From positions 3,952,001 to 4,016,000 of the forward strand of contig NZ_CP034179.1 in NCBI RefSeq assembly GCF_003860345.1: DNA of 64,000 nt, written 5' to 3'. The stretch is from Caenibius tardaugens NBRC 16725. Its GTDB lineage: Bacteria; Pseudomonadota; Alphaproteobacteria; Sphingomonadales; Sphingomonadaceae. The number at the start of each line of letters is the position of its first letter. Position 1 is the stretch's first letter. Below the pieces are notes generated by a model that saw only the letters and a program-made list of their open reading frames with translations, searched no databases and was not told the origin of the DNA. The position numbers were made by a program, and so were the translations under genes. Positions 32 to 31,988 of the stretch are shown here, piece by piece.

Positions 32-433
32 ATGAAGATCGGGGAACTGGCGGCCACTACCGCAACGAAGGTAGAGACAGTTCGGTATTATGAGAGGATC
101 GGCCTCCTGCCACCGCCTGGCCGCACGTCTGGCAATTATCGCAGCTACGGCATTGAGCATCTGGCGCGCCTATCGTTCATTCGCCGTGCGCGCGATCTGG
201 GCTTTACGCTCGAGGCCGTTCGCGAGCTTCTAACGCTCGCCGATGACCAGGAGCGCTCCTGCGAAGCCGTGGACGGCATCGCCCGCGCACATTTGACGGA
301 GGTGGACCGCAAGATCGCAGATCTCATGGCATTGCGCGGCGAACTCGACCGAGTGATCGGCTCGTGTAGCCGCGGCACGGTAGCGGATTGCAAGATCATC
401 GACGCGCTGGCGCCGCGCAACCCCGCCCCCTAG
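32..433 (+). CDS. MerR-family metal-responsive transcriptional regulator
   Basis: A 133-residue regulator that binds a metal ion and untwists its promoter. The N-terminal winged helix-turn-helix (residues 1-70) has the family pattern of TVRYYERIGLLPPP and NYRSY, followed by a dimerisation helix. Cys77, Cys112 and Cys120 are in the positions used for metal binding. CueR has Cys112 and Cys120 but Ser77, whereas divalent sensors (MerR, ZntR, PbrR and CadR types) have Cys at the 77-equivalent. A divalent metal such as Cd, Pb, Zn or Hg is therefore more likely than copper. The operator lies directly upstream and points to a divergent target outside the window. The specific metal cannot be decided from sequence alone. 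Confidence 0.9.
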   Translation: MKIGELAATTATKVETVRYYERIGLLPPPGRTSGNYRSYGIEHLARLSFIRRARDLGFTLEAVRELLTLADDQERSCEAVDGIARAHLTEVDRKIADLMALRGELDRVIGSCSRGTVADCKIIDALAPRNPAP

Positions 434-459
434 GTGGCTCCGGCAATGCGGGAGCAGGT

Positions 460-476
460 TGGGAATTTGTATCCCA
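460..476. promoter_or_regulatory. Inverted repeat upstream of response regulator
   Basis: TGGGA and TCCCA are separated by 7 bases in the 113-base gap between the MerR gene and the response regulator. It is a possible operator for the metal-responsive two-component operon. Nothing beyond the symmetry and the position supports it. Confidence 0.3.
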
Positions 477-546
477 TGGCGTTCGATCAATGTGGCTATG
501 TAACTTTCGGGGCGCCGATCCGGCTGTTCCATAAACACCGCGTTCG

Positions 547-1239
547 ATGGGAATGCCTGAATCTATGCGTATCCTGCTTGCCGAAGACGACACGGATACT
601 GCCCAGTTCATCGAGACCAGCCTCGGAGAGCTTAGCCATGTCGTGAAGTCGGTCGGCACCGGCGATGCGGCCTTGCGGATTGCCCGTTCGGAATCCTGGG
701 ATGTCATCATTCTCGATCGGATGCTGCCGGAGCTGGACGGCCTGACCCTGCTCAAGGCTGCGCGCAGCTGCGGCGTTACGACCCCCGTGCTCATGTTGAC
801 CGCGCTCGGCCGAATCGAGGATCGCGTTGACGGGCTCGATGCCGGTGCGGACGATTACCTGGTGAAGCCGTTTGCGCCGAGTGAGCTTGTCGCCCGTGTC
901 CAGGCGCTCGGGCGTAGGTACACACAAAGCGAGATCGCCACAAAGCTTCTGGCCGGGCCGCTTGAACTGGACCTGATCGCCCGCGAGATCAGACGCGATG
1001 GGCGGCTCGTCCTGCTTCAGCCCCGCGAATTGAGGTTGCTCGAAGTGCTCATGAGACACGCTGGAGAGTTCGTCACCCGGGCGATGCTGCTCGAGGATGT
1101 CTGGGATTTTCACTTCGATCCGCAGACCAAGCTCATCGAGACTCACATGAGCCGACTTCGTGCCAAGCTCAACGAGGGTGGACTCCCCGATCTCATCGAA
1201 ACCGTTCGTGGTTCCGGCTATCGGGTACGGGCGGTATGA
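547..1239 (+). CDS. OmpR-family response regulator (CusR/CzcR-like)
   Basis: Receiver plus winged-helix DNA-binding response regulator, 230 residues from the first ATG. An internal ATG at 565 (MRILLAEDD) gives the usual 224-residue start and has GGGA 12 bases upstream, so it may be the real start. The receiver has the acidic triplet EDD (13-15), phospho-acceptor Asp57 in IILDRMLP and Lys107 in LVKPF, numbered from the first Met. The C-terminal half has the OmpR winged helix ending in RGSGYRVRAV. Its stop overlaps the start of the histidine kinase gene (ATGA), so the pair is co-translated. Context makes a periplasmic metal signal controlling the RND efflux genes the likely role. Confidence 0.93.
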   Translation: MGMPESMRILLAEDDTDTAQFIETSLGELSHVVKSVGTGDAALRIARSESWDVIILDRMLPELDGLTLLKAARSCGVTTPVLMLTALGRIEDRVDGLDAGADDYLVKPFAPSELVARVQALGRRYTQSEIATKLLAGPLELDLIAREIRRDGRLVLLQPRELRLLEVLMRHAGEFVTRAMLLEDVWDFHFDPQTKLIETHMSRLRAKLNEGGLPDLIETVRGSGYRVRAV

Positions 1240-2585
1240 AGTTCGGGCCGGGCAGCGCCGCCAACCGCATCGCGCTCTTGGGCTGGCTGATCTACGCGGC
1301 AGCGACCTTGCTGCTGGGTATCGCGGTCTATTTCGCGACCCACGCCGCCTTCTCGCGTCAGATCGACGAGCGGATCGAGCAGGCGACCTCCGCCCTTCTG
1401 ATCGAGTATCACGATGACGGGGTCGGAGGTGTGCAGTCCGCGCTCGATCAGCAGGGGCGGAACAGGCCGATTGGTCTGGGCACTGCTTTGTTCGACGCCC
1501 GGGGAGCAAGGATTGCCGGTAACCTGGCAATCCCACTCACGGAGCCGGGCTGGCGCAACATCGTGTTCCACGACCCTGGTGAAGGGCGCGAGCAAGCGCG
1601 AGCCCAAGTGACCGTGCTCCCGGGCAACTATCGTCTCGTGGTTGCCGCCGACCTGGAGTCGTTAGAGACGATTGATCACACCATCCTGGCAATGTTCGGT
1701 GTCACGGTTGTCGTCTTGCTGCTGCTGGGCCTGGCAGGAGCCTTGTTGCTGGCCCGTTATCTGCATCGCCGTTTGGCGGGCATCGAGGCGACTTCTAGCG
1801 CTATTGTGCGGGGGGACTTCACGCGACGGGCCGGCATCGGCACCGCCGGAGATGAGTTTGACCGGGTGGCGCTTTCGCTCAACACCATGCTCGACCGGAT
1901 AGCGGGATTGATTGCGAACCTGCGTCAGGTCACCGCTGGTCTGGCGCACGACCTGCGCACGCCGCTATCGCACCTGCGCAACCATCTCGAACGGATGCGC
2001 GGTGGCCAGGGACAAGCTGCTACCGGTGCGTCGATCGACGAGGCCGTTGCGCAGGCGGACAATGTGCTGGCCCTGTTCGACGCGATTCTGCGCATCTCGG
2101 AAGTCGAGGAAGGTAGCCTGCGCCGTGCCTTCAGTGCGGTCGATTTGTCCACGCTCGTATCGGAGCTGGGCGATACGCTTGTCCTTCTCGCCGAAGATGA
2201 GCGGCATTTTCTGCACGTTGCCGTCGGCGATGGCATCAGAGTCCAGGGTGATCGGGAATTGATTGCCCAGGCGCTCACCAATCTCGTCGAGAATGCGTTG
2301 CGGCATACACCGGAGGGATCGGTCATCGGTCTTCAGGTCCGGTGCGACGAGGGTGGCGCGCTGGTGACGGTCAGTGACAACGGCCCCGGCATTCCCGAAG
2401 CTGATCACGAGCGCGCACAGCAACGCTTCGTCAGGCTTGAATCCGCGCGCTCGGCTCCCGGCCACGGGCTCGGGCTGAGCATGGTGCGGGCCATCGCGCA
2501 GGCGCACGGCGCAACCTTCTCGCTCGGCGATGCTGGGCCGGGCCTGCGCGCCGAAATTCGTTTTCCAAAGAGGATCATCGCGTGA
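1236..2585 (+). CDS. Sensor histidine kinase of metal-responsive two-component system
   Basis: Membrane-bound kinase of 449 residues that partners the upstream response regulator. TM1 is at about residues 11-33, the periplasmic sensor region about 34-150, TM2 about 151-173 and a HAMP linker about 174-226. His238 in GLAHDLRTPLSH is the phospho-acceptor. The ATPase domain has the N box with Asn349 and Asn353 (NLVENALRHT), G1 DNGPGIP (381-387) and G2 GHGLGLS (409-415). The sensor region has no CusS-like Met/His cluster, so the ligand is not obvious. The stop overlaps the start of the outer-membrane factor gene, which places regulation and efflux in one operon. Confidence 0.93.
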   Translation: MKFGPGSAANRIALLGWLIYAAATLLLGIAVYFATHAAFSRQIDERIEQATSALLIEYHDDGVGGVQSALDQQGRNRPIGLGTALFDARGARIAGNLAIPLTEPGWRNIVFHDPGEGREQARAQVTVLPGNYRLVVAADLESLETIDHTILAMFGVTVVVLLLLGLAGALLLARYLHRRLAGIEATSSAIVRGDFTRRAGIGTAGDEFDRVALSLNTMLDRIAGLIANLRQVTAGLAHDLRTPLSHLRNHLERMRGGQGQAATGASIDEAVAQADNVLALFDAILRISEVEEGSLRRAFSAVDLSTLVSELGDTLVLLAEDERHFLHVAVGDGIRVQGDRELIAQALTNLVENALRHTPEGSVIGLQVRCDEGGALVTVSDNGPGIPEADHERAQQRFVRLESARSAPGHGLGLSMVRAIAQAHGATFSLGDAGPGLRAEIRFPKRIIA

Positions 2586-16776: not shown

Positions 16777-17724
16777 TCACATCCGATAGAGCAGGCCGAA
16801 GGAAAGCGTATATTTGGGTGCGAGCTGATAGCCGTTGACATGGTTGTAGAGCGGCAGTTGCACGATCCCGTAGGCCGAGATGTGCGATGAGAGATTGGCC
16901 GAAAGACCCGGCGAGAGATAGAGTTGCTCGCCGCCGCTGTTCTCGCGGTCCGAATTGATGCCGCTGTCCTTGGCCGCAAGACGCAGGTTGAGCTGCAACT
17001 GCGGCGTGATGCCCTTCCAGCCGGTATAGTTGACGCCGGCCGAGAATGTGCCCGCGGCACCCGGCTTGAAATCCTCCCGCGAGGTCAAGGGCACGTCGCC
17101 CTGGGCCTGGAGGATATAGTCGAACGCGCCGGAAAGCTTGCCGAAGTGATAGGCACCGACAGTCAAATCCGTCGTCCCGGTCCCCGGTTGTAAGCCGCGA
17201 TCGACTTGCCCACCTGCTGCGGGGCCAGTGCGGAAGTTTTGATGAAATCCGCCGGTCGGCAATTTGAGGCCCAATTGCACGCCGGTGATGCCGGCGCCAC
17301 CGAACCCCTGAAAGCGCACGCTGAACCGGGCATCGCCAAGCCCGTTGGTGCGCGAATAGCTCTGGTCGGTATCGCCTTCCGCGATTGTCCGGTGCGGACG
17401 CAGGACGAAGGGTAGTTGCGCGTTGACCGCCCATTTGGCGTTGAAGGCGTGATCGACGCTCAGCGTCAGATATTGGTTGTAAGTGTTCTGCTCGATTTCG
17501 CGGGTGGTTGGCAGCGGAATCGTGCTGCGGTCGACGACATCGGTTCCGGACCTGAGTTCGGTCTGCGGAACATAGTCGTAGCGCAGCCCGATGGTCGTGC
17601 CCGGTTGCGCCACCAGGCCCTGGCTGAGCCAGTCGGAGGTCAGGTTGCAGCCGCAGCTCGAGCAGGCAAAGGCCGGGGTGGCCGTGAGCAAGGCAATCGG
17701 CAAGGCAATAAGCATGTGTTTCAT
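16777..17724 (-). CDS. Outer-membrane beta-barrel-like protein with N-terminal CSSCGC
   Basis: A 315-residue protein whose start at 17724 is fixed by AAGGAAAAT upstream and a signal peptide. The longer frame upstream reads through the PepSY gene in another phase and is rejected. Cleavage after TPAFA leaves CSSCGC at the mature N-terminus (Cys21, Cys24, Cys26), a likely metal ligand set. The rest has alternating amphipathic strands with aromatic belts (for example YHFGKLSGAFDYILQAQG) and ends in FGLLYRM, consistent with a transporter-like barrel. Its start overlaps the PepSY stop by 4 bases. The role is unknown; copper passage or binding is inferred from context. Confidence 0.72.
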   Translation of the reverse strand: MKHMLIALPIALLTATPAFACSSCGCNLTSDWLSQGLVAQPGTTIGLRYDYVPQTELRSGTDVVDRSTIPLPTTREIEQNTYNQYLTLSVDHAFNAKWAVNAQLPFVLRPHRTIAEGDTDQSYSRTNGLGDARFSVRFQGFGGAGITGVQLGLKLPTGGFHQNFRTGPAAGGQVDRGLQPGTGTTDLTVGAYHFGKLSGAFDYILQAQGDVPLTSREDFKPGAAGTFSAGVNYTGWKGITPQLQLNLRLAAKDSGINSDRENSGGEQLYLSPGLSANLSSHISAYGIVQLPLYNHVNGYQLAPKYTLSFGLLYRM

Positions 17725-19103
17725 GGGATTTTCCTTTGATGGTTTTGAATAGGAATGCCCAGCCACGCCCCAAGGCGTGGCAGGCGGGGAAGAACGAGGC
17801 GATCGAACAGCCAGAGCAGGATCAGTGATGCCGCCAGCAACGGCAGCAACGCCGCGAGCAGCAGCACGATTGCGACCACCCCGCCTATCTTCGCGGGTAC
17901 GGCGGGAGGCGGTGGGGCGCCGAGCTGGCCTTCGGGTTTGCGCCTGCGCCACACGACAAAGCCGCTGACCATCAGCGTGACGAGCGCTGTGGCGGTGAAC
18001 AGCCCGATGAGTTGATTGGTCCAGCCGAAGAGCTGGCCCTCATGCCATGCAACGCCATATCCCACCGCGCGGTCGATCGGATGCTTGTCGGCAAAGCCGG
18101 AGCGCGAGACTTCGCGGCCCGTGCCGGCATCGAACTGTACGGTGACGCGCAGCGGACGGTCTTGCGTGTCCGACTTGACCGTCCACCTGTCGGCGCTGGC
18201 GGGCGTTTCCCAGTCCGAGGCGCCCGGCGGTCGGATCAGCACCGGGTAGGGCAGGTTCAGCGGCACGGCCTTGGCGATGATCGTGGAGATCGGAACAGTC
18301 GACGATCCGGCTGGCATGTCCATACCTACCATCGCCATGTGCTGATGCGCGTCGTGCCCGGCAGTGGCGGGCACCTTCCCACCAATCGTCCAGTCCTGTG
18401 GGCCTTTGACAAGGCCAAGTTCGGCCCGAACCGCCGCGAAAGCAGATCCCCATACAGCAGCCCACGGCAAGCCTGTCACCAGCAGGACAAGCGCGAAGCC
18501 GCTGACCCAGAAGCCGGTAACGGCGTGAATATCGCGCCAGAATGTCCTGCGTCCCAGTCGCAGCCGCGGCCAAACAACGCCCGCCGGCCCACGCCCGCCC
18601 CCCTGATCCTTGGTCGGCCACCACAGGAACAGGCCGGTGAGGATCATGACGATGGCCCAGCTTCCCGCCAGTTCGACTAGCCACGAGCCTTTCTCGCCCA
18701 TCAGCAAAGTGCCGTGAAGCTTGAACACCAGATTGGTGATGCGCCATTCGGGGTCGAGGTCGCCAACGACCCGCCCCTGGGGCGAGACGAAGACATCACG
18801 CGTGGCCCCGTCTCGACGCCGGACGCTTACGAGGGCCGCATCGCCTTCGCTACGCGGTAGCCGATAGCTGTCGAGCGTTGCACTGGGCCAGGCCGCCAGT
18901 GCACGCGCCACCTGTTCGTCGCCGCTCACCCGGTGCGCGGTGGGAAGATCGCGAAAGCTGCGCTCCTCCCACCGGTCGATCTGCGGCTTGAACAGGTAGA
19001 TCGAGCCAGTGATCGCGAGCCATAGAATGAAGGGCATGACGAACAGCCCGGCATAGAAATGCCAGCGCCAGATCGTGCGATAGAGGTGCGCGCGAGTGTC
19101 CAT
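17721..19103 (-). CDS. PepSY-associated transmembrane protein with His/Met-rich loop
   Basis: A 460-residue inner-membrane protein of the PepSY_TM family, which includes reductase-like partners of TonB-dependent metal uptake such as FoxB and PiuB. Several TM helices are visible (about residues 16-38, 145-165, 192-215, 365-385 and 410-435). Conserved membrane-edge histidines His15, His130 and His193 could bind heme. A periplasmic-side loop carries GHDAHQHMAMVGMDMP, with His250, 253 and 255 and Met256, 258, 261 and 263, strongly suggesting copper binding. It lies between a TonB receptor and the CSSCGC protein. Reduction of imported Cu(II) to Cu(I) is a reasonable hypothesis, not a demonstrated function. 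Confidence 0.87.
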   Translation of the reverse strand: MDTRAHLYRTIWRWHFYAGLFVMPFILWLAITGSIYLFKPQIDRWEERSFRDLPTAHRVSGDEQVARALAAWPSATLDSYRLPRSEGDAALVSVRRRDGATRDVFVSPQGRVVGDLDPEWRITNLVFKLHGTLLMGEKGSWLVELAGSWAIVMILTGLFLWWPTKDQGGGRGPAGVVWPRLRLGRRTFWRDIHAVTGFWVSGFALVLLVTGLPWAAVWGSAFAAVRAELGLVKGPQDWTIGGKVPATAGHDAHQHMAMVGMDMPAGSSTVPISTIIAKAVPLNLPYPVLIRPPGASDWETPASADRWTVKSDTQDRPLRVTVQFDAGTGREVSRSGFADKHPIDRAVGYGVAWHEGQLFGWTNQLIGLFTATALVTLMVSGFVVWRRRKPEGQLGAPPPPAVPAKIGGVVAIVLLLAALLPLLAASLILLWLFDRLVLPRLPRLGAWLGIPIQNHQRKIP

Positions 19104-19108
19104 CGGGC

Positions 19109-21160
19109 TCAGTCCAGCTTCACGCGGACGCCGACGGTGGCGGTCAGCGGCGTGCTCAACCGGCGCGGTTCGAACCCGTTGTTGTCGGCGATATAGCGAT
19201 TATCGAACAGGTTCTGCACCTGGACGAAGGCATTGAACCTGTCCGTCAGCGGGTAGCTCGCGGCAAGATCGACGACGACATGCGCGTCCACCGGCAGCGT
19301 GTGGTCATTGTCGCCGTAGCTTTTCGAGAACCAGCGCAATTGCGGCGTGATCGTCAGGCCCCGCGGGCCGGTCCAGGTGATCGAGCCGGTCAGCTTGTGC
19401 CTGGGAATCCCCATTTGCTGGAGGCTGATGCTGGCGGGGTCGAGCGCGTTCTCGGTGATGATCGATTCCGCAAAGGTGTAGCCCGCGTTCAGCGACCAAT
19501 GTGGGCTGGGTGTCCAGCTCGCTTCGGCTTCGACGCCCCTGCTGCGCGCCGCTCCGGCGTTGATGTTGCGCGAGCCGAAGGCAAAGCCCGGCGGCAGCTC
19601 GCTGTCGTCGAGATTGCGGTAGGTGAGCAAGTTGCGGATGGTGTTGGTGTAGAGCGTCACCTGTCCGCGAAAACCCGGACGGGTATAGTCGAAGCCCACT
19701 TCTGCACCCTTGAGCGTTTCCGGTTTTAGAGAGGCATCGGAATAGAAAATCCCTTGAGGCACCGAGACGGTGCGATAGAGGTTGTCCATCGTCGGCGCGC
19801 GAAAGGCCGAATAACCCGCCGCGCGTAAGGCGAAGTGAGGGGTGACCGCATAGCGCAGCGATACGCGCGGATCGACGCTGGTAGTGCGCTGCGAGGGCAC
19901 ATTGCCGAGCAGCCCGCCGGGATTGCCATCGTAGCCGTCGTAATTGAGGAACGACTGATAGCGCACACTCGCCAGAATCTCGAGCGCCTCGACCGGCCGG
20001 ATACTCGCCTGCGCAAAGCCGCCAAGGAAGCGCTGCTTGCCCCGACCAATGTCGGTGCGCAGCCTGGTGCCCGTCTGGTCGAAAATGTCTGCATCGTCTT
20101 CGCCGCTGATGCCGTGATAATCGACACCCAGCGAATAGCTCCGCAACACGCCTGCGAGTGGCTGTGACCAGACCAGCGACGCGCCGGTATCATGCACCCG
20201 GCTGAAATGGCGGTTCTGGATATATTCCGCCGCATTGGCGGCAAAGCCATCGGGTGTCCCCGCATTGTCCGTCCGGAACAGGCCGTCGGTGTGAAACACC
20301 GTGGCGGTCAATGTCGCGCCCGAGGCGAATGTGCGCGTCACGTCGCCCGAATAGACCCAGTTGTGCTGCTTGTTGGATTGAAGCTTCGTCGAGTAATGCT
20401 GCTGATCGTTGTCATGATAGACCACGCGGGTATGGGCGGTGAGGTCTGCGCCAAGCTGGAACGTGCCGCCAAAGGCGATATTATGCGCAGTGAACGGCGT
20501 CGCGACAGTGATCGGCCCACGTTCGGCAGGCAGCGTTTCATTATAGCCATCGGTATGGTTGGTATCGGCATCGAGCGTGAATTTCACGGCATCGGAGACG
20601 ACATAGGCACCGTTCGCGCTGGCGCGATACGTGCCGTACATCCCACCACTGGCTTGCAGCGCCAGCGTGGTTTTGTCGGGATCGCGGCTGAGGATGTTGA
20701 TGACCCCGCCCATCGCATAGTTGCCCCACAGCGTCGCGCCGCCACCGCGCACGATCTCCACCCGGTCGATTGCTTCCAGCGGGGCACGTCCCCATTGGAC
20801 CGTGCCGAAGAACGGATCGTTGAGCGGGACGCCATCCAAGAGCACCAGCGCCCGGATGCCGCCAAGGCCGCGCATCGAAATGGTGTCCGCGGTGGGGTGG
20901 ATTTCCCCTGACGAGGCGATCGGCAGATCGACCGACGGCACGCGTCGCAGGATGTCATCCAGCGATTTGGCGGGTGTGGCTGAGATCCGGTCTGCGTTCA
21001 GGACCGACACGCTGACTGGCACGTCTTCGACGGAGCGTGCGGAACGGGTCGCGGTCACGACGATGTCGTCGCCAGAACCTTCGGTGGCTTCCTCGGCATG
21101 GGCGGTTTGGACGGCGGCCGCACCCAATACCGTGGCCATCGCAATGAGAGACGATTTCAT
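19109..21160 (-). CDS. TonB-dependent outer-membrane receptor (copper locus, first)
   Basis: A 683-residue active-transport barrel. The start at 21160 gives a signal peptide ending in TAHA. The TonB box is DDIVVTA, followed by a plug domain (about 50-155) with IRALVLLDGVPLNDPFFG and VEIVRGGGATLWG. The 22-strand barrel ends in TATVGVRVKLD, without the usual terminal aromatic residue. The frame running further upstream is an out-of-phase reading of the next receptor gene. It precedes the PepSY gene by only 5 bases. A copper complex or metallophore is the likely ligand by context, but the receptor sequence does not identify it. Confidence 0.9.
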   Translation of the reverse strand: MKSSLIAMATVLGAAAVQTAHAEEATEGSGDDIVVTATRSARSVEDVPVSVSVLNADRISATPAKSLDDILRRVPSVDLPIASSGEIHPTADTISMRGLGGIRALVLLDGVPLNDPFFGTVQWGRAPLEAIDRVEIVRGGGATLWGNYAMGGVINILSRDPDKTTLALQASGGMYGTYRASANGAYVVSDAVKFTLDADTNHTDGYNETLPAERGPITVATPFTAHNIAFGGTFQLGADLTAHTRVVYHDNDQQHYSTKLQSNKQHNWVYSGDVTRTFASGATLTATVFHTDGLFRTDNAGTPDGFAANAAEYIQNRHFSRVHDTGASLVWSQPLAGVLRSYSLGVDYHGISGEDDADIFDQTGTRLRTDIGRGKQRFLGGFAQASIRPVEALEILASVRYQSFLNYDGYDGNPGGLLGNVPSQRTTSVDPRVSLRYAVTPHFALRAAGYSAFRAPTMDNLYRTVSVPQGIFYSDASLKPETLKGAEVGFDYTRPGFRGQVTLYTNTIRNLLTYRNLDDSELPPGFAFGSRNINAGAARSRGVEAEASWTPSPHWSLNAGYTFAESIITENALDPASISLQQMGIPRHKLTGSITWTGPRGLTITPQLRWFSKSYGDNDHTLPVDAHVVVDLAASYPLTDRFNAFVQVQNLFDNRYIADNNGFEPRRLSTPLTATVGVRVKLD

Positions 21161-21195
21161 GACGTATTGCTTTCGATGAGTTTCGGTGATGCGGC

Positions 21196-23235
21196 TCAGA
21201 AGCGCGCGTGGACGCCAGCGAACACGGCCCGGCCGATGCCCGGATTGAAGAGTTCCGAACTCGCGCTTGCCGTTCCAGCAATCGCGACGGTCGAGATGTA
21301 GTGCTTGTCTGTGAGGTTGCGGCCTTCGAGATAGACCGACCAGTGCTTGCCGATGTCGAAGCCGGCCTTGAGGTTCAGCAGCGCATAGGGATCGACCGTC
21401 AGCGTGTTGGCATTGTCGGCAAAATAGTGCCCCGACGCCCACTCGACATTCGATCCCACATAGAAACCTGACGGGTGCTTGTAGAGCAGCTCGGCCCGCA
21501 GATAATGCCTCGGCACGCCCGGCAGGCGATTGTTGCCATAGGTCGCGTCGCCATCGAAGAGGAAGTCGCTGTAGGTGTAGGCGGCGGTAAGTTCCAACTT
21601 GTCGCCAGACGCCGAGAGCGGGATGTCCGCGTTGAGACCTGCCTCAATGCCCTGATGCACGGTGCGACCAGCGTTAATGATGCTGCATGCGCTATACGGT
21701 CCGGTGGTCAGGCATTGCAGCTCGTTCCTGAGCTCGGAACGGTAGAGCGCAATGTCCCAGCCAATCCCGCCGCTATGGCCGCGCGTTCCGAACTCGTAGG
21801 TCGTGGCGCGCTGCGCCTTCAGGTTCGGATTGGTGACGACATTCGCATCATAGCTCGGGACTTCCCCACTGCGCGAGACATTGGCGAAGACCTGAATGTC
21901 GGGACGGGCATCCCAGAGAATGCCGAACCGCGGGCTCCACAAGTCGTAACTTGGTTTGCCGGACTGGTTGCCATCGGAGAGGAAGCGGTCGCGCCGCTCG
22001 CGGCTCGCGTGCAGATATTGAACGCCGGCGATGAGGGACAGGTTCGGCCGAACGTAAAGCGAATCCTCCGCATAGAAGGAGAGATTCTTCGGCTTGTCGA
22101 CCATCGAGGTCGTGAGCGCGCCCTTGGTTGCGGCGATGTTGACATACTGGTTGGTGTCGATCGTGCCGTTTTGCAGATTTGCCCCGACGATCAGCCGGTT
22201 GCGGATGCCGTCCAGCGAGCGATCGTCGGTGGCACGCACGAAGCCGCCATAGTCATCGACGGTATAGTCCAGATACTGGTAGATCGGGTGGTCGACGTGC
22301 CGGTGGTTGTAGAACAGACCCAGTTCCACGACCGTATTGTCGAGGCGCAGCGTTGTCTTGTTGGAGACCCGGATCGAGTCGACGTTACGCTGCTGGTCCA
22401 GATAGACCCAGTAACCGTTCGCGTCGCGCGGCTTGTTCAGGGCATCGCTCTTGGTCACTTCGCCGGGGATGCGCTGGTTGGTGCTGGCGGCGGTAACGTA
22501 GAAGCGGGTCTCGACGTTGGACGAGATCCGATATCCGATGTTGAGATTTCCGCGCAGGGCATTGCCGTTGCTGTGGTCGCGATAGCCGTCGTTCCGCTGG
22601 GCCGACACGGTCGCGAAATAATCGAGAGGGCCGGACACACCGCCTGTGCTGGCCTGGCCCTTCACATAGCCGAAGCTGCCGCCGTCGATCCGCGCGTCCA
22701 ACCTAGAGGTGTCTCGTCCCGTCGGCGTGACGAGGTTGATTGCGCCGCCCAGCGCATTCGAGCCGTAACGCAGGGCATTGGCCCCCTTGAACACCTCGAC
22801 ATAGCGATAGGCGCTGGGGTCGATTTCGAAGAAATCCATCAACCCATCCGACGTGTTCATCGGTACGCCGTCGAGGTAGACCGCGATGCCGCGAATACCG
22901 TAGGCACGCGACAAGCCCGAGCCCCGAATGGCGACACGGGCATCGTCGCCCATGCGGGGCTGGACGATCACACCCGGCACATAGCCGAGGATATCCTTGA
23001 TGTTCTGCACGGGCGTGTTCTTGAACGCGGTGTCCGGCACGACCTCGACACCGCCAGCGGTGCGCTGGATGGTGGCCGTCGCCTGCGCCGTGTCGGGCGT
23101 GGCGGTGACGACGATCGTGTCGGACACCGATACCCCTGAGCCGGCCGCCCCAGAGTCCGCTGCCCCCGCGTCCGCCGCCATGGCGGGCGTTGCGGCGATC
23201 GAGGCCAAGGCCACGGCGATGAGTGATGATTTCAT
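21196..23235 (-). CDS. TonB-dependent outer-membrane receptor (copper locus, second)
   Basis: A 679-residue receptor; the start at 23235 has AGGGGG upstream and a signal peptide ending in PAMA. The TonB box is SDTIVVTA. The plug contains VQNIKDILGYVPGVIVQPRMG, IAVYLDGVPMN and VEVFKGANALRYGSNALGG. The barrel ends in VFAGVHARF with a terminal Phe, the normal outer-membrane insertion signal. It shares the first six residues (MKSSLI) with the downstream receptor, but the plug sequences differ clearly, so the two probably take different ligands. It is followed after 35 bases by the other receptor gene. Confidence 0.9.
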   Translation of the reverse strand: MKSSLIAVALASIAATPAMAADAGAADSGAAGSGVSVSDTIVVTATPDTAQATATIQRTAGGVEVVPDTAFKNTPVQNIKDILGYVPGVIVQPRMGDDARVAIRGSGLSRAYGIRGIAVYLDGVPMNTSDGLMDFFEIDPSAYRYVEVFKGANALRYGSNALGGAINLVTPTGRDTSRLDARIDGGSFGYVKGQASTGGVSGPLDYFATVSAQRNDGYRDHSNGNALRGNLNIGYRISSNVETRFYVTAASTNQRIPGEVTKSDALNKPRDANGYWVYLDQQRNVDSIRVSNKTTLRLDNTVVELGLFYNHRHVDHPIYQYLDYTVDDYGGFVRATDDRSLDGIRNRLIVGANLQNGTIDTNQYVNIAATKGALTTSMVDKPKNLSFYAEDSLYVRPNLSLIAGVQYLHASRERRDRFLSDGNQSGKPSYDLWSPRFGILWDARPDIQVFANVSRSGEVPSYDANVVTNPNLKAQRATTYEFGTRGHSGGIGWDIALYRSELRNELQCLTTGPYSACSIINAGRTVHQGIEAGLNADIPLSASGDKLELTAAYTYSDFLFDGDATYGNNRLPGVPRHYLRAELLYKHPSGFYVGSNVEWASGHYFADNANTLTVDPYALLNLKAGFDIGKHWSVYLEGRNLTDKHYISTVAIAGTASASSELFNPGIGRAVFAGVHARF

Positions 23236-23275
23236 GATATACCCCCTGAATTCTATTCGAATGCTTTTTGCTGTT

Positions 23276-23848
23276 TCAGCCGATGAGACGCTTGAGCTTG
23301 GCGAGCGCCATCTGGTCGCTCTCGTCATGGTCGATGGTGGAAACGAAGGTGCCATCCCGATCCATGAGGTAGACCGAGGCCGTGTGGTCGATCGTGTAAT
23401 CGCCGCCCGGCTGGGGCACGCGCTGGTAGAAGACCCCGAAATTCTTCACGGCCTGGGCAAGGTGCTCCTTGTCCCCGGTCAGTCCGATGACGGGCGTGCC
23501 GAAGAGGGCCACATAGCGGCCCAGGTCCTCTGGTTTGTCATGTTCGGGATCGACCGAGACGAAGACGATGGCAAACTTGCCGCCATCCGGTCCGAGCTGC
23601 TTCCTGAGCCGCGCCATGCGCGCGAGCGTCGTCGGGCAAACGTCGGGGCAGCGGGTGTAGCCGAAGAAGATCGCATAGGGCTTGCCCTTGAGACTGGCGC
23701 TGCCCACGGTGTGGCCATCGGGCGCGGTCAGTTCGAATGGCCCGCCGAATGCAGTCGGCGCGTCGGGCTGCGAACTGCTGCACGCAGCAAGGCCTGCCAG
23801 TAGCAGGGCCGCAAGCCCCACCCTGATCCGGCGATCAACGCGGCGCAT
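23276..23848 (-). CDS. SCO1/SenC/PrrC-family copper chaperone lipoprotein
   Basis: A 190-residue periplasmic copper chaperone or thiol reductase for cytochrome oxidase CuA assembly. The lipobox LAAC places the anchor at Cys23. The copper site is CPDVC with Cys67 and Cys71 (GYTRCPDVCPTTL) plus His155 in YTIDHTASVYL, the three ligands of SCO proteins. It overlaps the PCuAC gene end by 14 bases. SCO and PCuAC proteins act together in copper delivery, so the pair is a functional unit. Confidence 0.93.
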   Translation of the reverse strand: MRRVDRRIRVGLAALLLAGLAACSSSQPDAPTAFGGPFELTAPDGHTVGSASLKGKPYAIFFGYTRCPDVCPTTLARMARLRKQLGPDGGKFAIVFVSVDPEHDKPEDLGRYVALFGTPVIGLTGDKEHLAQAVKNFGVFYQRVPQPGGDYTIDHTASVYLMDRDGTFVSTIDHDESDQMALAKLKRLIG

Positions 23849-24332
23849 GATCGCGATCCATTGCGGGCATGCCGGGATTAGCGGTCATGGACTGGACGGC
23901 AAATTCCACGCGCACCTGTCCGGCGCGCTGGAATTGCAGGGTGACAGGAACCGTCGTGCCGGCCTGGAGCGGCGCCTTCAGCCCGATGAACATGAGGTGA
24001 TAGCTGCCTGGCCGCAGTTCGACACTGGCGCCCGCCGCAATGGGAAGGCCATCGACCAGGCGGCGCATCCGCATGATGCCGCCGTCCATGCTGACGGTGT
24101 GGATCTGGACTTCGGCCGCGATCGGCGTGGTGCCGCCGATCAGCCGGTCATCGGCCTTGCCCTTGTTGGTGATGACCATGAAACCGCCGCCGGTCGGCTG
24201 ACCCTGCGCGGTCTTGCGCGCCCAGGGATGCGCCACCGTGATGGCCCCGCTCACATAGTCACGTGCGAGCAGCGGTGCCGCGATCGCCAGCGACAGGCTC
24301 GATGCGACAATCGCGTGATGAAAGGCTTTCAT
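23835..24332 (-). CDS. PCuAC-type periplasmic copper chaperone (DUF461)
   Basis: A 165-residue exported chaperone that passes Cu(I) to the oxidase or to SCO. The start at 24332 is chosen for GGAGGA just upstream and a signal peptide (MKAFHHAIVASSLSL to LLARD). The Cu(I) site is complete: His78, Met82, Met87 and Met89 in QIHTVSMDGGIMRMRR, then His112 and Met114 in SYHLMFIGL, matching the family H-M-x(n)-M-H-x-M pattern. The C-terminus has a further MPAMDRDH. The upstream in-frame extension to 24479 is not supported by a ribosome binding site. Confidence 0.93.
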   Translation of the reverse strand: MKAFHHAIVASSLSLAIAAPLLARDYVSGAITVAHPWARKTAQGQPTGGGFMVITNKGKADDRLIGGTTPIAAEVQIHTVSMDGGIMRMRRLVDGLPIAAGASVELRPGSYHLMFIGLKAPLQAGTTVPVTLQFQRAGQVRVEFAVQSMTANPGMPAMDRDHAPR

Positions 24333-24501
24333 GAGAGTCCTCCGAGGAAATGAGCTGATTGGAAATGTCGATGGGAGTGGTCGCCTGCAGCGCGGCATCG
24401 CCGGCGCGAAAGGCAAGACAGAGGCCGATGGCGATCCAGGTCCGTCTGCGGAACCGTTTGAAGGCTCCGGCCTGGCCATCGCTGAGGGTGAGAGCGCTCA
24501 T
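24259..24501 (-). CDS. Small ORF coupled to DUF2244-like gene, uncertain
   Basis: An 80-codon frame that begins with an ATG overlapping the stop of the upstream gene (ATGA), the usual arrangement of genuine genes in this operon. It predicts a basic N-terminus and one short hydrophobic segment (about residues 21-40, TWIAIGLCLAFRAGDAALQA). Its last 74 bases overlap the PCuAC gene in another frame, which is unusual. It may be a small membrane protein or only a coupling ORF. No family is recognised. Confidence 0.35.
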   Translation of the reverse strand: MSALTLSDGQAGAFKRFRRRTWIAIGLCLAFRAGDAALQATTPIDISNQLISSEDSHESLSSRDCRIEPVAGDRGTAART

Positions 24502-25052
24502 TGACCGCCTCCACGCACATGGGCGAGGGCGGCGCGGATCAGCGGTGCGATGCGGGCGCGTTCCGTACTATCGACACAGCGGCCGATCTCGATGCTTTGC
24601 CAGTGGTAATGCAGCATGAGGCGAACGTCGAACGGACCTTTGCGTAGTTCCTCGATCCGCGTCCAGTGGCTGGGCAAGGTCGTTACCTTGCCGCGGTGGT
24701 CGCGGATCGTCAGCCGGTCGAAGTCGATCTCGATCGTTTCCGAAGGCACCGGCTGGCGCTGGAATATTTCGAGCGCCAGCAGCAGCGATGCCATGCCGAC
24801 AAGCACGGCGATCGGCACCAGATAATGGCCGCGCATGGCGGGCGCGATGGTGGCGGCACAGGACAGGCCCAGCATCGACAGCAGTGGCAACCGGCCCGAT
24901 GCGGGGAAGGATGAGCGGTTCTGCTGCACATGGAGAGCAAAGGGGACGGTTATCGATGTCAGCCTGGCCCTGGCGGCATCGCCCTCGATCGACCTTGGCG
25001 GCGCAAGGTCTTCGAATCGCCGCCCTTCCGGGCAGCGTAAAAGAATATGCAT
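24498..25052 (-). CDS. DUF2244-like integral membrane protein
   Basis: A 184-residue protein from the ATG at 25052, chosen because GGAG lies about 10 bases upstream; the reading from 25088 lacks a good site. It has two TM segments (about residues 56-75 and 78-98) and a C-terminal cytoplasmic domain with IEIDFDRLTIRDHRGK and HWQSIEIGRCVDSTERARI, resembling the DUF2244 signature for an unknown function. DUF2244 genes often sit near cytochrome oxidase genes in alphaproteobacteria, which fits the SCO and PCuAC neighbours. The assignment comes from recalled family patterns. Confidence 0.65.
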   Translation of the reverse strand: MHILLRCPEGRRFEDLAPPRSIEGDAARARLTSITVPFALHVQQNRSSFPASGRLPLLSMLGLSCAATIAPAMRGHYLVPIAVLVGMASLLLALEIFQRQPVPSETIEIDFDRLTIRDHRGKVTTLPSHWTRIEELRKGPFDVRLMLHYHWQSIEIGRCVDSTERARIAPLIRAALAHVRGGGQ

Positions 25053-25128
25053 GGGGATTTTCTCCGGCTGATCCGGAGCGCGCGACATAGGCGCACACCG
25101 GACACTTCCGACAATTCAGTTCAGAATG

Positions 25129-25536
25129 TCAGAGTGCAGCCGGTGGTCCGCGCAGCGGCGGACGGAGAAAATGAGGCCGGCCCCGCAGGACCGGCGTTGT
25201 GGGCGCGAAACCGAGCGCCAGAATGAAAGCGAGTGCGAGCGCCAGCAGCGGCGTATCGGCGCCGCCAAGCGCGCCCATGGTCAGCGACGAGAAGGCGCAG
25301 TGGCCGCCATCCTTGCCCTGGGACTGGCCATCGTCATGCGACTTACTATCCATGGGGATGGTCAGCGAGACAGCCTTGTGGGTGACACCGTCGAGACAGA
25401 GCTGAACGGTGAAGGTCTTCGAAGCGCCGCCGACCATATAGCCCTGCGGGACCAAAGCCTTCACGCACAGCGCCAGCGCCACCAGCAGGATGGCGAATGT
25501 GCGATGATCGCGCAGGAAGGCTCGAACAGTGCCCAT
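25129..25536 (-). CDS. DUF2946-family protein, copper-associated
   Basis: A 135-residue protein with an N-terminal TM segment (about 13-28) that ends in the typical DUF2946 sequence CVKALVPQGYM, then LCLDGVTHK and a His/Asp/Cys-containing stretch SKSHDDGQSQGKDGGHC. A second TM segment (about 95-113) follows, then a basic tail. DUF2946 members are repeatedly found beside copper TonB receptors, PCuAC and PepSY genes; their biochemical function is unknown. It is the first gene of the minus-strand copper set. Confidence 0.8.
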   Translation of the reverse strand: MGTVRAFLRDHRTFAILLVALALCVKALVPQGYMVGGASKTFTVQLCLDGVTHKAVSLTIPMDSKSHDDGQSQGKDGGHCAFSSLTMGALGGADTPLLALALAFILALGFAPTTPVLRGRPHFLRPPLRGPPAAL

Positions 25537-25588
25537 TACCGGGCGCCCTTAGTTACTTTGTCGCCGCTTGTCATCGTTCTTGGACAAA

Positions 25589-25609
25589 CCTTGGGCAATT
25601 TGACCAAGG
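25589..25609. promoter_or_regulatory. Inverted repeat upstream of copper acquisition operon
   Basis: CCTTGG and CCAAGG flank a 9-base centre about 55 bases before the DUF2946 start. The position suits an operator of a metal-responsive repressor, but I do not recognise the regulator. The rest of the 197-base gap 25537-25733 shows no other clear element. Confidence 0.3.
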
Positions 25610-25733
25610 AACGGCTTATCATAACCGCCGTTTTTCCAGCTTTCGCGCCAGTGTGAGGCGGTGCAAGCGGAAGCGACGTGCGCCTTCGGAGATTTTGAAA
25701 TCGCCCCAGATCAAGTGGTGCGCGTTTGATCGT

Positions 25734-26129
25734 TCACCAGCCTCGCTGCCAGCCGCCATGAGCTTCGGCGTTGATCCACTGCCCAATCCGGTCAAAGCGG
25801 TAAGCGATGTCGCGGATGGCGGGCCAGTCTCCCTCGGCACATTCGTGACGCTGCCGGTCCTCCAGTCGATCAATCGTAAAATGAATTCGGCGCGCGGTGT
25901 CTTCGTCGATTTCATCCTCGTCCTCTTCATGATCAAGACGATTTTCGAGTGCATGGGCCCTCTGGCCGGAGCATATTGAGCGCGCGAGCCTGTCGTCGTC
26001 ATCGAATTGGCGATAGCGCGGGGCATAACCACCACCATTACCAATATAGATGCCCCAGCTTTGTGCGTTCGCCGAAGCACTTGTGAACAGTCCGGCCCCC
26101 AATATTGCCGCCAGCAGCACCTTGCGCAT
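25734..26129 (-). CDS. Exported acidic protein of unknown function
   Basis: A 131-residue protein with signal peptide MRKVLLAAILGAGLFTSASANAQ and GGAGGG before the ATG. The mature part has a Gly/Tyr-rich start (GIYIGNGGGYAPRYRQFDDDD), then a strongly charged helical region DHEEDEDEIDEDTARRIHFTIDRLEDRQ, and ends with Trp-containing HGGWQRGW. It holds two cysteines (SICSGQ and ECAEGD). Small periplasmic proteins with a similar layout are common in sphingomonads, but I cannot name a function. The acidic cluster could bind cations. Confidence 0.65.
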   Translation of the reverse strand: MRKVLLAAILGAGLFTSASANAQSWGIYIGNGGGYAPRYRQFDDDDRLARSICSGQRAHALENRLDHEEDEDEIDEDTARRIHFTIDRLEDRQRHECAEGDWPAIRDIAYRFDRIGQWINAEAHGGWQRGW

Positions 26130-26323
26130 TTATCCCTCCGTGATCGGGCAATTCACCCATCTCGGGTTAACGCGATCCGCGTGGCGTCATGCTGAATGTG
26201 TTCGTAGTCTGGCGTTCATCCATCGGCTGGACCAGGCAAGGTTCGACTTACCGGTATTGTGCCCTGACATCAGGGGAAACACGACGTTGGCCGAACCGAC
26301 TTGCTTTTCTTAACGCTTATCCC

Positions 26324-28216: not shown

Positions 28217-28341
28217 GAACGAGCGGCTGGGGCCGCATCGGAGACGTGTGTCGACCGCCCATGGCGTCCGGTCGCCACGCGTGCCGACCGTTCGTGAACG
28301 GCACGCCCCCGCCACGTCGCAAGACGCCGGGGGACCATTTC

Positions 28342-30378: not shown

Positions 30379-30395
30379 CGCTGCCGTTCGACCGG

Positions 30396-30424
30396 GCTGC
30401 GCGGGGTTTGTTCCGCCGCGCGGC
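30396..30424 (+). terminator. GC-rich stem-loop after btuB-like gene
   Basis: GCTGCGCGG (30396-30404) pairs with CCGCGCGGC (30416-30424), one G-U pair, 11-base loop, then TTTCGTCCCT. The T-run is only three bases, so it is probably a weak terminator or an mRNA-stabilising hairpin within the btuB-nicT operon. Confidence 0.4.
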
Positions 30425-30451
30425 TTTCGTCCCTCAATCTCGGAAACGATC

Positions 30452-31492
30452 ATGCCACCATTCGCCAAACCTGCTTCCCTGCGCCGGCGGATCGCCGTTC
30501 TCTTCGCCGGGCTGATCGCCGCCAATATCGCTGCCTGGACCTGGGCGTTTAGCCTCTTTCACGCACAACCCCTGATGCTGGGCACGGCCTTGCTCGCTTG
30601 GGGGCTGGGCCTGCGCCACGCGGTCGATGCCGATCATATCGCGGCCATCGACAACGTGACCCGCAAGCTGATGCAGGAGGGGCAGCGACCGATTGCGGTC
30701 GGTTTCTGGTTTGCGATCGGGCATTCGGCGATTATCGCCGTGGCCTCTATCACCATCGCCCTCACTGCCAGCGTTCTCTCCCGGTTCGGCGCATTCAAGG
30801 AAATCGGCGGGGTGATCGCCACCGTGGTTTCTGCCTTCTTCCTGTTCACCATCGCCGGCATGAACCTACTCATTCTGCGTTCCGTGTGGAGCATTTTTGC
30901 TCATGTCCGCGCGGGTGGAACCTATGTCGAGGACGACCTCGATCTGCTGGTGAGCTCGCGCGGTCTGCTCTCGCGGCTGTTTCGGCCAATGTTCCGCCTG
31001 GTGAATACGAGCTGGCACATGGCCCCGCTCGGCTTCCTGTTCGGTCTCGGCTTCGATACGGCCAGCGAAGTCGCCATTCTGGGCATGTCCGCCAACCAGG
31101 CCGCCAACGGGCTTTCGATCGGCACGATCCTGGTCCTGCCCGCGCTGTTCACTGCCGGCATGGCGCTGATCGATACGGCGGACGGGGTAGTGATGTTGGG
31201 TGCCTACGAGTGGGCTTTCGTCAAGCCGCTCCGCAAGCTCTACTACAACATCACCATCACCCTGATCTCGGCCATCGTGGCGATCCTGATCGGCGGAATC
31301 GAAACTCTGGCCCTAATTGGCGACAAACTTGGCCTGACCGGTTGGCCTTGGGGGCTGGCGACCAGGCTGGGCGAGAACTTCAACAGCCTTGGCTTTGCAA
31401 TCATCGGGCTTTTCGCGCTGTGTTGGCTCGCCAGCTTCGCGATCTACCGCTGGAAGCGCTTCGACGAGATCGAGGTGCCGGTCGCCGGGTGA
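30452..31492 (+). CDS. NiCoT-family nickel/cobalt transporter
   Basis: A 346-residue inner-membrane permease for Co(II) or Ni(II). The family signature LRHAVDADHIAAIDN (HAVDADH at residues 56-62) is the metal selectivity site in TM2, and FWFAIGHSAIIA and LGFDTASE are the second and third conserved motifs. About eight TM segments are seen. It lies 73 bases after the B12-regulated receptor and directly before the second cobalamin riboswitch, so cobalt for corrinoid synthesis is the probable substrate. Confidence 0.93.
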   Translation: MPPFAKPASLRRRIAVLFAGLIAANIAAWTWAFSLFHAQPLMLGTALLAWGLGLRHAVDADHIAAIDNVTRKLMQEGQRPIAVGFWFAIGHSAIIAVASITIALTASVLSRFGAFKEIGGVIATVVSAFFLFTIAGMNLLILRSVWSIFAHVRAGGTYVEDDLDLLVSSRGLLSRLFRPMFRLVNTSWHMAPLGFLFGLGFDTASEVAILGMSANQAANGLSIGTILVLPALFTAGMALIDTADGVVMLGAYEWAFVKPLRKLYYNITITLISAIVAILIGGIETLALIGDKLGLTGWPWGLATRLGENFNSLGFAIIGLFALCWLASFAIYRWKRFDEIEVPVAG

Positions 31493-31586
31493 GCGGTTAT
31501 CCGTGAAACCGGCGACAAGGATTGGCTTGCCATTCATTTTGCGATAGGGGCCGCGGCGAAGGTCCGGCCTGTTCGGCCCTTCACTG

Positions 31587-31793
31587 ATCGCGCCGGTGCC
31601 CCGAACGGGGCTTAATCGGGAATGCGGTGCGGAATGCCTGGCTTTCCAAATCCGCGGCTGTCCCTGCAACTGTAAGCGGATAGCGCGATGCACATGCCCC
31701 TCATTTGCGGGGGCGGCCACTGGACTGCGCCTCGGCAAGTCTGGGAAGGCGTGCATCAAGCTGTGACCCGCGAGCCAGGAGACCTGCCGGCGC
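31587..31793 (+). promoter_or_regulatory. Cobalamin riboswitch 2 (controls cobW-cob operon)
   Basis: A second complete cobalamin aptamer: CGCCGGTGCC (31591-31600), AATCGGGAATGCGGTGCGG, CAAATCCGCGGCTGTCCC plus the B12 box GCAACTGTAAGCGG (31667-31680), GCCACTGG, CTGGGAAGG and GAGCCAGGAGACCTGCC (31772-31788). It is very similar to riboswitch 1 except for the P6-type arm. The operon it heads makes B12, so this is end-product repression of synthesis. Confidence 0.95.
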
Positions 31794-31797
31794 ACCG

Positions 31798-31855: not shown

Positions 31856-31988
31856 GAAGCTGTGCGGCTGGGGCTGCACGGCCGCGTGGTCACGGGTGCC
31901 TTGTCGCGCCCGCCCGTCGCCCGCGCGCCGACCGGACCTGTCCGGCAAGCCCTGCGCTTTCTCGCTCCGGCGCGCGGGGGAAGTTGCC

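What the first reader, a model, noticed from the sequence alone, without database searches (positions are those of the whole stretch)
16777..25536. Candidate copper acquisition system: two TonB receptors, PepSY reductase-like protein, CSSCGC barrel, SCO, PCuAC, DUF2244-like and DUF2946
Seen: eight tightly packed minus-strand genes, several with explicit copper motifs (SCO CPDVC plus His155, PCuAC H-M-H-M set, PepSY loop GHDAHQHMAMVGMDMP, barrel N-terminus CSSCGC). Known: PepSY_TM proteins such as FoxB and PiuB act after TonB receptors in siderophore iron release; SCO and PCuAC load cytochrome oxidase. Inference: the locus takes up a copper complex, reduces Cu(II) at the PepSY protein and passes Cu(I) to PCuAC and SCO. 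Its placement next to a copper export block would give opposing import and export modules. DUF2946, the CSSCGC protein and the small coupled ORF have no known function. This is my best candidate for an undescribed system.
Basis: partly seen in the sequence, partly recalled or inferred. Interest (0 to 1): 0.75.

Follow-up and report, generated by a model that had tools for sequence, protein, structure and literature searches.

The report
Copper-supply operon led by arrest peptide
A bacterial gene cluster that probably imports copper for respiration is headed by a short leader peptide that likely stalls its own ribosome when copper is scarce, and many related clusters carry an RNA hairpin placed so that the stall could turn on the next gene.

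Summary
The genes are as described, but the system is not undescribed: it is a sphingomonad relative of operons headed by the copper leader CruR (DUF2946) with TonB receptors and CrpH-type PepSY_TM (Bordetella, 2022-2026), and of Bradyrhizobium pcuABCDE. Best reading: copper-starvation supply of periplasmic copper to heme-copper oxidases. No expression or transport data exist here.

New relative to what I could search: (1) in the window's family the CruR motif CXXC lacks its second Cys in 54 of 56 scored leaders (CAFS here), while most keep an R[A/G]PP arrest motif. (2) The CSSCGC protein is an unnamed predicted outer-membrane channel of FapF/COG4313 fold; it directly follows a DUF2946 leader in 13 of 19 Pseudomonadota loci examined and a different CXXC leader in 3 of 3 Verrucomicrobiota loci. 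(3) In 89 leader loci, codons a stalled ribosome would cover pair with the next gene's Shine-Dalgarno (4.5 versus 1.3 in chimeras, p = 3e-12; control gene pairs 0.6), predicting SecM-like unmasking besides or instead of the published Rho model. (4) Most leader-linked PepSY proteins share a His/Met-rich loop. All are computational.

The parts
25129..25536 (-). CruR-like leader peptide gene (DUF2946, 135 aa): Cys24, Cys47, Cys80; CAFS at 80-83 in place of CXXC; RGPP at 129-132; 45 residues between the two motifs, 3 residues after RGPP
   Evidence: PF11162 32.1 bits, cut-off 23.7; motif positions; comparison with 56 other family matches and 60 from elsewhere in the phylum
25062..25146 (-). RNA hairpin: arm CCGGCUG (25143-25137, starting at the predicted A-site codon) pairs with CAGCCGG (25070-25064), which overlaps the first two bases of the GGAG Shine-Dalgarno (25065-25062) of DUF2244
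   Evidence: region 25155-25040 folds with z = -4.46 against 200 shuffles; arm-to-SD score 5.90 versus 0.55 in chimeras, 0 of 20 reach it; 2 of 40 shuffles reach it; structure printed
24498..25052 (-). DUF2244 membrane protein (196 aa if started at 25088); function unknown, possibly PH-like (PMC2817789, passages)
   Evidence: PF10003 60.5 bits; also directly after the leader in L063 and L071
24259..24501 (-). small ORF overlapping the DUF2244 stop (ATGA); its C-terminal half overlaps PCuAC
   Evidence: weak tblastn matches to L063, L069, L077 at E 0.1-0.4
23835..24332 (-). PCu(A)C periplasmic copper chaperone
   Evidence: PF04314 133.7 bits
23276..23848 (-). SCO1/SenC copper chaperone (CPDVC)
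   Evidence: PF02630 165.5 bits
21196..23235 (-). TonB-dependent receptor 1; 14 homologs (36-75% identical) in the leader loci; His319 and His530 invariant in all 15 aligned
19109..21160 (-). TonB-dependent receptor 2; two homologs (about 30%) directly follow DUF2946 leaders, with PCuAC further downstream
17721..19103 (-). CrpH-like PepSY_TM protein; His15, 130, 193, 354 invariant; His/Met-rich loop 250-265
   Evidence: PF03929 221.9 bits; 36 of 36 leader-linked PepSY proteins keep the four His; loop compared with 28 controls
16777..17724 (-). CSSCGC protein, unnamed family; predicted outer-membrane beta-barrel with a disordered N-terminal segment that holds CSSCGC
   Evidence: no Pfam/NCBIfam match; alignment A1; AF2 model pLDDT 81, pTM 0.80; FapF best fold match

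Best explanation
A copper-starvation operon that brings copper into the periplasm and prepares it for heme-copper oxidases. Two TonB receptors, and possibly the CSSCGC channel, carry copper across the outer membrane (inferred). The CrpH-like PepSY protein, with four heme-type His and a His/Met-rich loop, reduces Cu(II) (inferred; proposed for CrpH in print). PCuAC and SCO pass copper to oxidase copper sites (established for these families). Expression is set by the CruR-like leader. With little copper the ribosome arrests on RGPP and covers the codons right after it. Those codons are one arm of a hairpin whose other arm holds part of the Shine-Dalgarno of DUF2244, so the arrest opens it and the operon is translated. 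When copper binds the nascent leader, through Cys80 and perhaps Cys47 instead of a CXXC pair, the arrest is released, the hairpin re-forms and the operon shuts. The hairpin and its co-adaptation with the arrest site are shown by computation; arrest, copper binding and the direction of the response are inferred from published CruR work. Rho termination may act in addition.
For: Leader: DUF2946, RGPP 3 residues before the end and 45 residues after the Cys motif, the spacing reported for B. pertussis CruR. RGPP gave the most stable arrest of the variants tested in print (passages). Hairpin: 89 scored loci of 117 analysed; arm-to-SD pairing 4.58 versus 1.30 in chimeras (46 family loci, window included) and 4.50 versus 1.29 (43 others), Wilcoxon p = 3.3e-12. 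The arm peaks at +6 to +17 nt from the P-site codon (0.24-0.27, against 0.008-0.029 upstream); 150 non-leader gene pairs score 0.59 versus 0.71 in chimeras. 81 of 89 leaders are under 60% identical to each other and 50 of these 81 score above 3. CCTGA spans the leader stop in 42 of 114, versus 54 of 732 long ORFs. Copper role: next gene after the leader in 45 family loci is a TonB plug protein in 30, PCuAC in 6, DUF2244 in 2. PepSY four His in 36 of 36. The genome has 4 COX1-family loci.
Against: No expression, metal or arrest data for this organism. The leader lacks CXXC, and changing CXXC to SXXS in B. pertussis strongly impaired copper control, while changing its upstream semi-conserved Cys (C51S) had no effect, which speaks against a role of Cys47. 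In the window only two bases of GGAG lie in the helix, and the mean paired probability of the SD (0.54) is not above its shuffles (0.66). 34 of 89 loci score 3 or less, and only 7 of 14 scored leaders before CSSCGC score above 3. For tails other than 3 residues the arm position is less sharp. TGA stops are near-universal in the family (55 of 56) but elsewhere 40 of 58, close to background 447 of 732. In B. pertussis the published evidence is for Rho termination with a 162-nt gap. Folding of GC-rich RNA by computer is fallible. PcuB deletion in Bradyrhizobium had no detectable phenotype, and crtA and crpH mutants did not phenocopy each other.
Confidence: 0.6

Rival explanations
1. Same copper operon, but the leader works only as published for B. 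pertussis CruR: the arrested ribosome blocks Rho, and copper-released translation allows Rho-dependent termination; the hairpin is incidental.
For: Direct genetic and in vitro evidence in B. pertussis (PMC9426467). The window RNA is C-rich at the end of the leader gene, C/G 1.36-1.52 in 80-nt windows between 25240 and 25101. The window SD is not more paired than in shuffles.
Against: Co-adapted arm-to-SD pairing at the ribosome position is not expected if only Rho matters. The gap to the likely start is 76 nt, shorter than the 162 nt of B. pertussis.
Confidence: 0.22
2. The receptors import another metal or compound (siderophore iron, B12-like, PQQ-like) and the copper genes are only neighbours.
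For: Among solved structures TBDT1 matches PqqU/YncD best and TBDT2 matches BtuB best; some PepSY_TM proteins reduce ferrisiderophores.
Against: TBDT1 homologs follow DUF2946 leaders and precede PepSY or PCuAC in several other genomes; TBDT2 homologs follow leaders in two loci. The best NCBIfam matches of both (siderophore receptor TIGR01783, 184 and 188 bits) stay under the cut-off of 223.5.
Confidence: 0.1
3. The leader has lost copper sensing (CXXC gone) and senses another signal such as another metal, redox state or export, still by arrest.
For: 54 of 56 scored family leaders lack the second Cys; CutF-like proteins with only His motifs are linked to other metals in print.
Against: The genes downstream are still copper genes or receptors; the first Cys is present in 56 of 56 scored and an upstream Cys in 53 of 56, versus 16 of 36 outside the class, which suggests a rebuilt rather than a lost site.
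Confidence: 0.15

Closest known systems
cruR-crtA-crpH operon of Bordetella pertussis (PMC9426467, PMC12914433, PMC13038864)
   Same: DUF2946 leader with C-terminal arrest motif, TonB receptor, PepSY_TM protein with four His, link to heme-copper oxidases
   Different: Leader here is CxxS and RGPP with a short gap; two receptors whose membership of the CrtA cluster was not shown; SCO, PCuAC, DUF2244, small ORF and CSSCGC protein added
pcuABCDE of Bradyrhizobium japonicum (Serventi 2012, not held; seen only through a passage of PMC12617631 and recalled)
   Same: Copper-starvation operon with a TonB receptor and PCuAC; TBDT1 homologs 53-54% identical lie between a leader and PCuAC in L183 and L208
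   Different: PepSY, DUF2244 and CSSCGC present here; whether L183/L208 are pcu operons was not tested
CutF-cutO of Rhodobacter capsulatus (PMC9973294)
   Same: DUF2946-like leader, proline-rich end, hairpin shielding the next Shine-Dalgarno
   Different: CutF is reported to raise CutO when copper is present; the logic expected here is on when copper is scarce
TccA of Caulobacter vibrioides (PMC12617631, passages)
   Same: Alphaproteobacterial TonB receptor needed for aa3 oxidase, predicted copper site with two His
   Different: Its sequence was not in hand, so no comparison with TBDT1 or TBDT2
FapF and COG4313 outer-membrane channels (PDB 5o67, 4rl8)
   Same: Best fold matches of the CSSCGC model (TM 0.67/0.74 and 0.64/0.74)
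   Different: 12-14% identity; N-terminal CxxCGC; leader-linked

Membership tests
CruR (DUF2946 copper leader) | DUF2946 profile match | tested here: met
   32.1 bits over cut-off 23.7
CruR (DUF2946 copper leader) | C-terminal RAPP-type arrest motif | tested here: met
   RGPP with a 3-residue tail; R[AG]PP in 46 of 56 scored family leaders
CruR (DUF2946 copper leader) | CXXC copper motif | tested here: not met
   CAFS; 54 of 56 scored family leaders lack the second Cys, versus 36 of 36 scored outside the class and 15 of 22 other Alphaproteobacteria with it
CruR (DUF2946 copper leader) | about 45 residues between the two motifs | tested here: met
   45
CruR (DUF2946 copper leader) | first gene of a copper operon | tested here: met
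   gene order; transcript not tested
CruR (DUF2946 copper leader) | copper-controlled arrest and Rho termination | not testable with these tools
   needs experiments
CrtA TonB receptors | conserved binding-site residues (W, E, QxH, R) including His358 | tested here: inconclusive
   no E..QxH spacing pattern in TBDT1 or TBDT2, but it was also absent from 24 of 28 other leader-near receptors-sized ORFs, so the pattern discriminates poorly
CrtA TonB receptors | same sequence-similarity cluster | not tested
   CrtA sequence not in hand; a 732-aa receptor in the PDB (9rvq) may be CrtA, not verified, and is not the best match of either receptor
CrpH PepSY_TM | four heme-ligand His | tested here: met
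   His15, 130, 193, 354; 27 of 28 controls share them too, so this defines PepSY_TM rather than CrpH
CrpH PepSY_TM | same similarity cluster as CrpH | not tested
   CrpH sequence not in hand; 33-35% identical to the PepSY of leader loci L156-L158
pcuABCDE operon | leader, TonB receptor and PCuAC together | tested here: met
pcuABCDE operon | PcuE (YcnJ-like) membrane protein | tested here: not met
   none among the eight operon proteins scanned; the YcnJ label is recalled
FapF/COG4313 channel fold | barrel fold | tested here: met
   Foldseek E 1.6e-12; profile E 1e-4 to FapF
FapF amyloid exporter | fap gene neighbourhood | not tested
   fap genes were not searched for

The most novel reading that the evidence does not exclude
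DUF2946 leaders across Pseudomonadota are SecM-type switches: the codons under the arrested ribosome, often with the stop codon, form the anti-Shine-Dalgarno arm of the next gene, so copper-controlled arrest acts on translation initiation. One branch (the window's family) has rebuilt the copper sensor around a single Cys of the old CXXC. And the CSSCGC family is a TonB-independent outer-membrane copper channel under leader control in more than one phylum.
Probability: 0.38. Interest if true: 0.8.

Novelty: new variant of a known kind. Interest (0 to 1): 0.6.

Why it matters
How copper crosses the outer membrane and how metal-sensing leader peptides switch genes are both open. The EMBO J 2025 paper (passages) asks whether RAPP/RGPP arrest regulates downstream genes and by what mechanism; the co-adapted hairpin gives a mechanism that a few point mutations can test. 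The CSSCGC family gives an uncharacterised outer-membrane protein tied to copper leaders. The loss of CXXC across a family is a natural experiment on what such a leader needs to sense copper.

Tried and rejected
Undescribed system: rejected after literature search. CrtA membership by a residue pattern: it failed on most leader-near receptors, so it is not used. CrtA by PDB: 9rvq suspected only. Hairpin by dinucleotide shuffles alone (4.35 versus 0.78 in 49 family loci, 4.08 versus 0.68 in 50 others; 48 of 99 with at most 2 of 40 shuffles) was judged too weak, because proline codons are inherently complementary to GGAGG, and chimeras and control gene pairs were added. Rfam: no match at E 1 in 24000-26200. 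Promoters and terminators: 2 and 8 found versus 1.9 and 6.3 in shuffles, uninformative. Plasmid search for a CSSCGC name gave 'transporter' or 'hypothetical protein' only. Paper search for CSSCGC found one unrelated virology paper; DUF2244 gave two papers, one seen in passages.

Rows dropped before counts: G190 (partial DUF2946 at a contig end) left out of the 58 listed family matches, so 57 used; L072 had no tail motif, so 56 scored. From I fetched 60 DUF2946 matches for analysis, chosen by me, mostly high-scoring and spread over families, not at random; its list was also cut by the tool. Of these 60, 2 had no tail motif. Hairpin: 117 loci, 99 scored and 89; the others lacked a tail motif, a next ORF with an SD-like site, or the distance window. 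CSSCGC: fragments or weak matches in G341, G421 and G524 not examined. PepSY controls (28) include L219 and L235, which lie in leader loci (G027, G007), and other close relatives; one distant control (L237) also reaches 5. Four linked PepSY proteins (L203, L192, L198, L174) have no such loop (2-3).

In this check I changed: confidence 0.62 to 0.60, Rho rival 0.20 to 0.22 and novel case 0.40 to 0.38, because the window SD is not more paired than in shuffles, only 13 of 42 CCTGA leaders have an exact TCAGG downstream, and C51S had no effect in print.
Full report
WHAT IS THERE. The window belongs to a 4.36-Mb single-contig genome. A MAG titled Sphingomonadales bacterium carries the same receptor 2-PepSY-CSSCGC run at 86-93% identity (L099), so I treat the window's taxonomic family as a sphingomonad family; the tool does not name it. 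The eight minus-strand genes are confirmed by Pfam except the CSSCGC protein, which matches no Pfam or NCBIfam family. A small ORF coupled to DUF2244 has weak partial matches in a similar position in three loci. A plus-strand copper export block lies beside it.

NOT UNDESCRIBED. DUF2946 is CruR: in B. pertussis it heads a copper-repressed operon with a TonB receptor (CrtA) and a PepSY_TM protein (CrpH). I saw PMC9426467 (outline, sections 9-11, passages), PMC12914433 (outline, part 1 of 3 of Results, sections 7 and 11, passages) and PMC13038864 (outline, sections 20-21, passages). CruR's CXXC senses copper and RAPP arrests the ribosome; Rho terminates transcription when copper is present. Over 75% of crtA genes are followed by PepSY_TM genes, over 40% of operons start with cruR, and a few have PCuAC and ScoI. 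Bradyrhizobium pcuABCDE is a similar operon (passage in PMC12617631; original paper not held).

OPERON CONTEXT. DUF2946 occurs in 52 of 199 genomes of the window's family and 114 of 398 sampled genomes of the phylum, own genome included. In 45 family loci (of 57) scanned, the next gene is a TonB plug protein in 30, PCuAC in 6 and DUF2244 in 2. Receptor 1 has 14 homologs (36-75% identical) among the leader loci, including L183 and L208, where a 53-54% homolog stands between leader and PCuAC. Receptor 2 has two leader-linked homologs at about 30%. The host genome has two more DUF2946 genes, one heading PCuAC-SCO-receptor 1 homolog (L034), and four COX1-family loci.

LEADER VARIANT. The window leader has RGPP at 129-132 with a 3-residue tail and exactly 45 residues after the Cys motif, as in B. 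pertussis, but the motif reads CAFS. Among 57 family matches (one of 58 left out), 56 could be scored: fourth position A 22, S 19, T 6, G 6, L 1, C 2; tail RGPP 39, RAPP 7, other 10. Outside the class, 36 of 36 scored have CXXC; in other Alphaproteobacteria 15 of 22 (60 matches fetched by choice). An upstream Cys 20-45 residues before is present in 53 of 56, 22 of 22 and 16 of 36 respectively. I infer a rebuilt copper site; this is not shown, and in B. pertussis the upstream Cys was dispensable. PMC12992588 (passages) reports RGPP as the most stable arrest variant. The CutF paper describes varied Cys/His motifs in a supplementary figure that I could not read, so the CxxS form may appear there.

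HAIRPIN. The window RNA after the arrest site folds with z = -4.46, pairing the codons from the A site onward with a stretch that takes in two bases of the Shine-Dalgarno of DUF2244. To test generality I scored pairing of nucleotides +3 to +20 from the P-site codon with the next SD. Chimeras that join the arrest half of one locus to the SD half of another keep proline codons and SDs but break co-adaptation: 4.58 versus 1.30 in 46 family loci and 4.50 versus 1.29 in 43 others, p = 3.3e-12; in 49 of 89 loci at most one of up to 20 chimeras reaches the observed value; 55 of 89 score above 3. The pairing arm peaks at +6 to +17, the stretch expected under the leading edge of an arrested ribosome (footprint length recalled). 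In 150 of 255 control gene pairs the score is 0.59 versus 0.71 in chimeras, and 11 exceed 3. Redundancy does not explain it (81 of 89 under 60% identity, 50 of 81 above 3). In several printed structures the anti-SD is the last codon plus UGA; CCTGA spans the leader stop in 42 of 114 versus 54 of 732 long ORFs, though only 13 of the 42 have an exact TCAGG downstream; TGA stops are 55 of 56 in the family, 40 of 58 elsewhere, 447 of 732 in background. Against: 34 of 89 loci score 3 or less; mean SD pairedness is only modestly above shuffles (0.71 versus 0.58, 0.70 versus 0.56) and in the window below them (0.54 versus 0.66); for tails longer than 3 the arm spreads to +23; only 7 of 14 scored leaders before CSSCGC score above 3. 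In print, such a hairpin is known for CutF, SecM and a SecDF leader (PMC9973294 sections 10-12 and passages; PMC10987492 passages). The CutF paper says intergenic RNA motifs were analysed, but in the sections I read it reports gap lengths. The main text of the CruR paper has no 'Shine-Dalgarno' or 'sequester'. Searches behind my view that this is not in print for CruR; supplements were not readable.

CSSCGC PROTEIN. Found in 8 of 199 family and 16 of 398 phylum genomes, own genome included and some matches partial, and in three Verrucomicrobiota MAGs. Of 22 homologs examined (one contig has two identical copies, counted once), 16 directly follow a leader ORF, 5 do not, and 1 (L099) sits behind PepSY as in the window. 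The 13 Pseudomonadota leaders all match DUF2946 best (7 over its cut-off, 6 below, weakest E 0.047); the 3 Verrucomicrobiota leaders match nothing in Pfam but have CXXC and end in PPPRGG-type tails. C21, C24 and G25 are invariant in 21 aligned members and C26 is in at least 90%. The model (pLDDT 81, pTM 0.80) lists 14 strands with residues 1-38 disordered; best folds are FapF and the COG4313 channel, which I recall as 12-strand barrels; profile search agrees (FapF E 1e-4). I infer an outer-membrane channel whose N-terminal thiols bind or gate copper; transport is not shown.

PEPSY. Four heme-type His are invariant in 36 of 36 leader-linked proteins and in 27 of 28 controls, so they mark PepSY_TM in general. 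The His/Met-rich loop distinguishes better: median maximum of 6 His+Met per 20 residues in linked versus 2 in controls; the higher controls are mostly close relatives of the window protein, two of them themselves in leader loci, with one distant exception (L237); four linked proteins lack the loop. The CrpH paper's main text has no 'loop', 'histidine' or 'methionine'.

VERDICT. Function largely known in kind; the leader mechanism, its altered sensor and the CSSCGC family are the new, testable parts.

Noticed in passing
L100:5318-5812, L101:1458-1901, L102:6738-7223: Verrucomicrobiota leaders before CSSCGC have CELC/CEIC and end in PPPRGG-type tails, with no Pfam match: possibly an independent copper leader family.
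   Followed up: partly
L104:6534-9821: Two identical leader-CSSCGC units facing away from each other on one contig; may be an assembly palindrome.
   Followed up: no
G000:C1:1979949-1980308 (L035): Third DUF2946 gene of the host genome, tail SQAPP, with a 724-aa ORF next that gave no match to either window receptor; near-identical leader in L066.
   Followed up: no
window 28246-33026: TonB receptor, NicO nickel/cobalt transporter and CobW protein in a row on the plus strand, a possible second metal locus.
   Followed up: partly
L079 (-128..2079 from leader stop): Receptor 1 homolog is split into two reading frames; described only.
   Followed up: no
tails (L035, L044, L055, L066, L070, L075, L085, L087): Some family leaders lack the Arg of R[AG]PP (TGPP, SGPP, QAPP, LGPP), yet 6 of 10 such scored loci keep a hairpin score above 3 (QAPP 2 of 2, SGPP 1 of 1, TGPP 3 of 6, LGPP 0 of 1).
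   Followed up: partly
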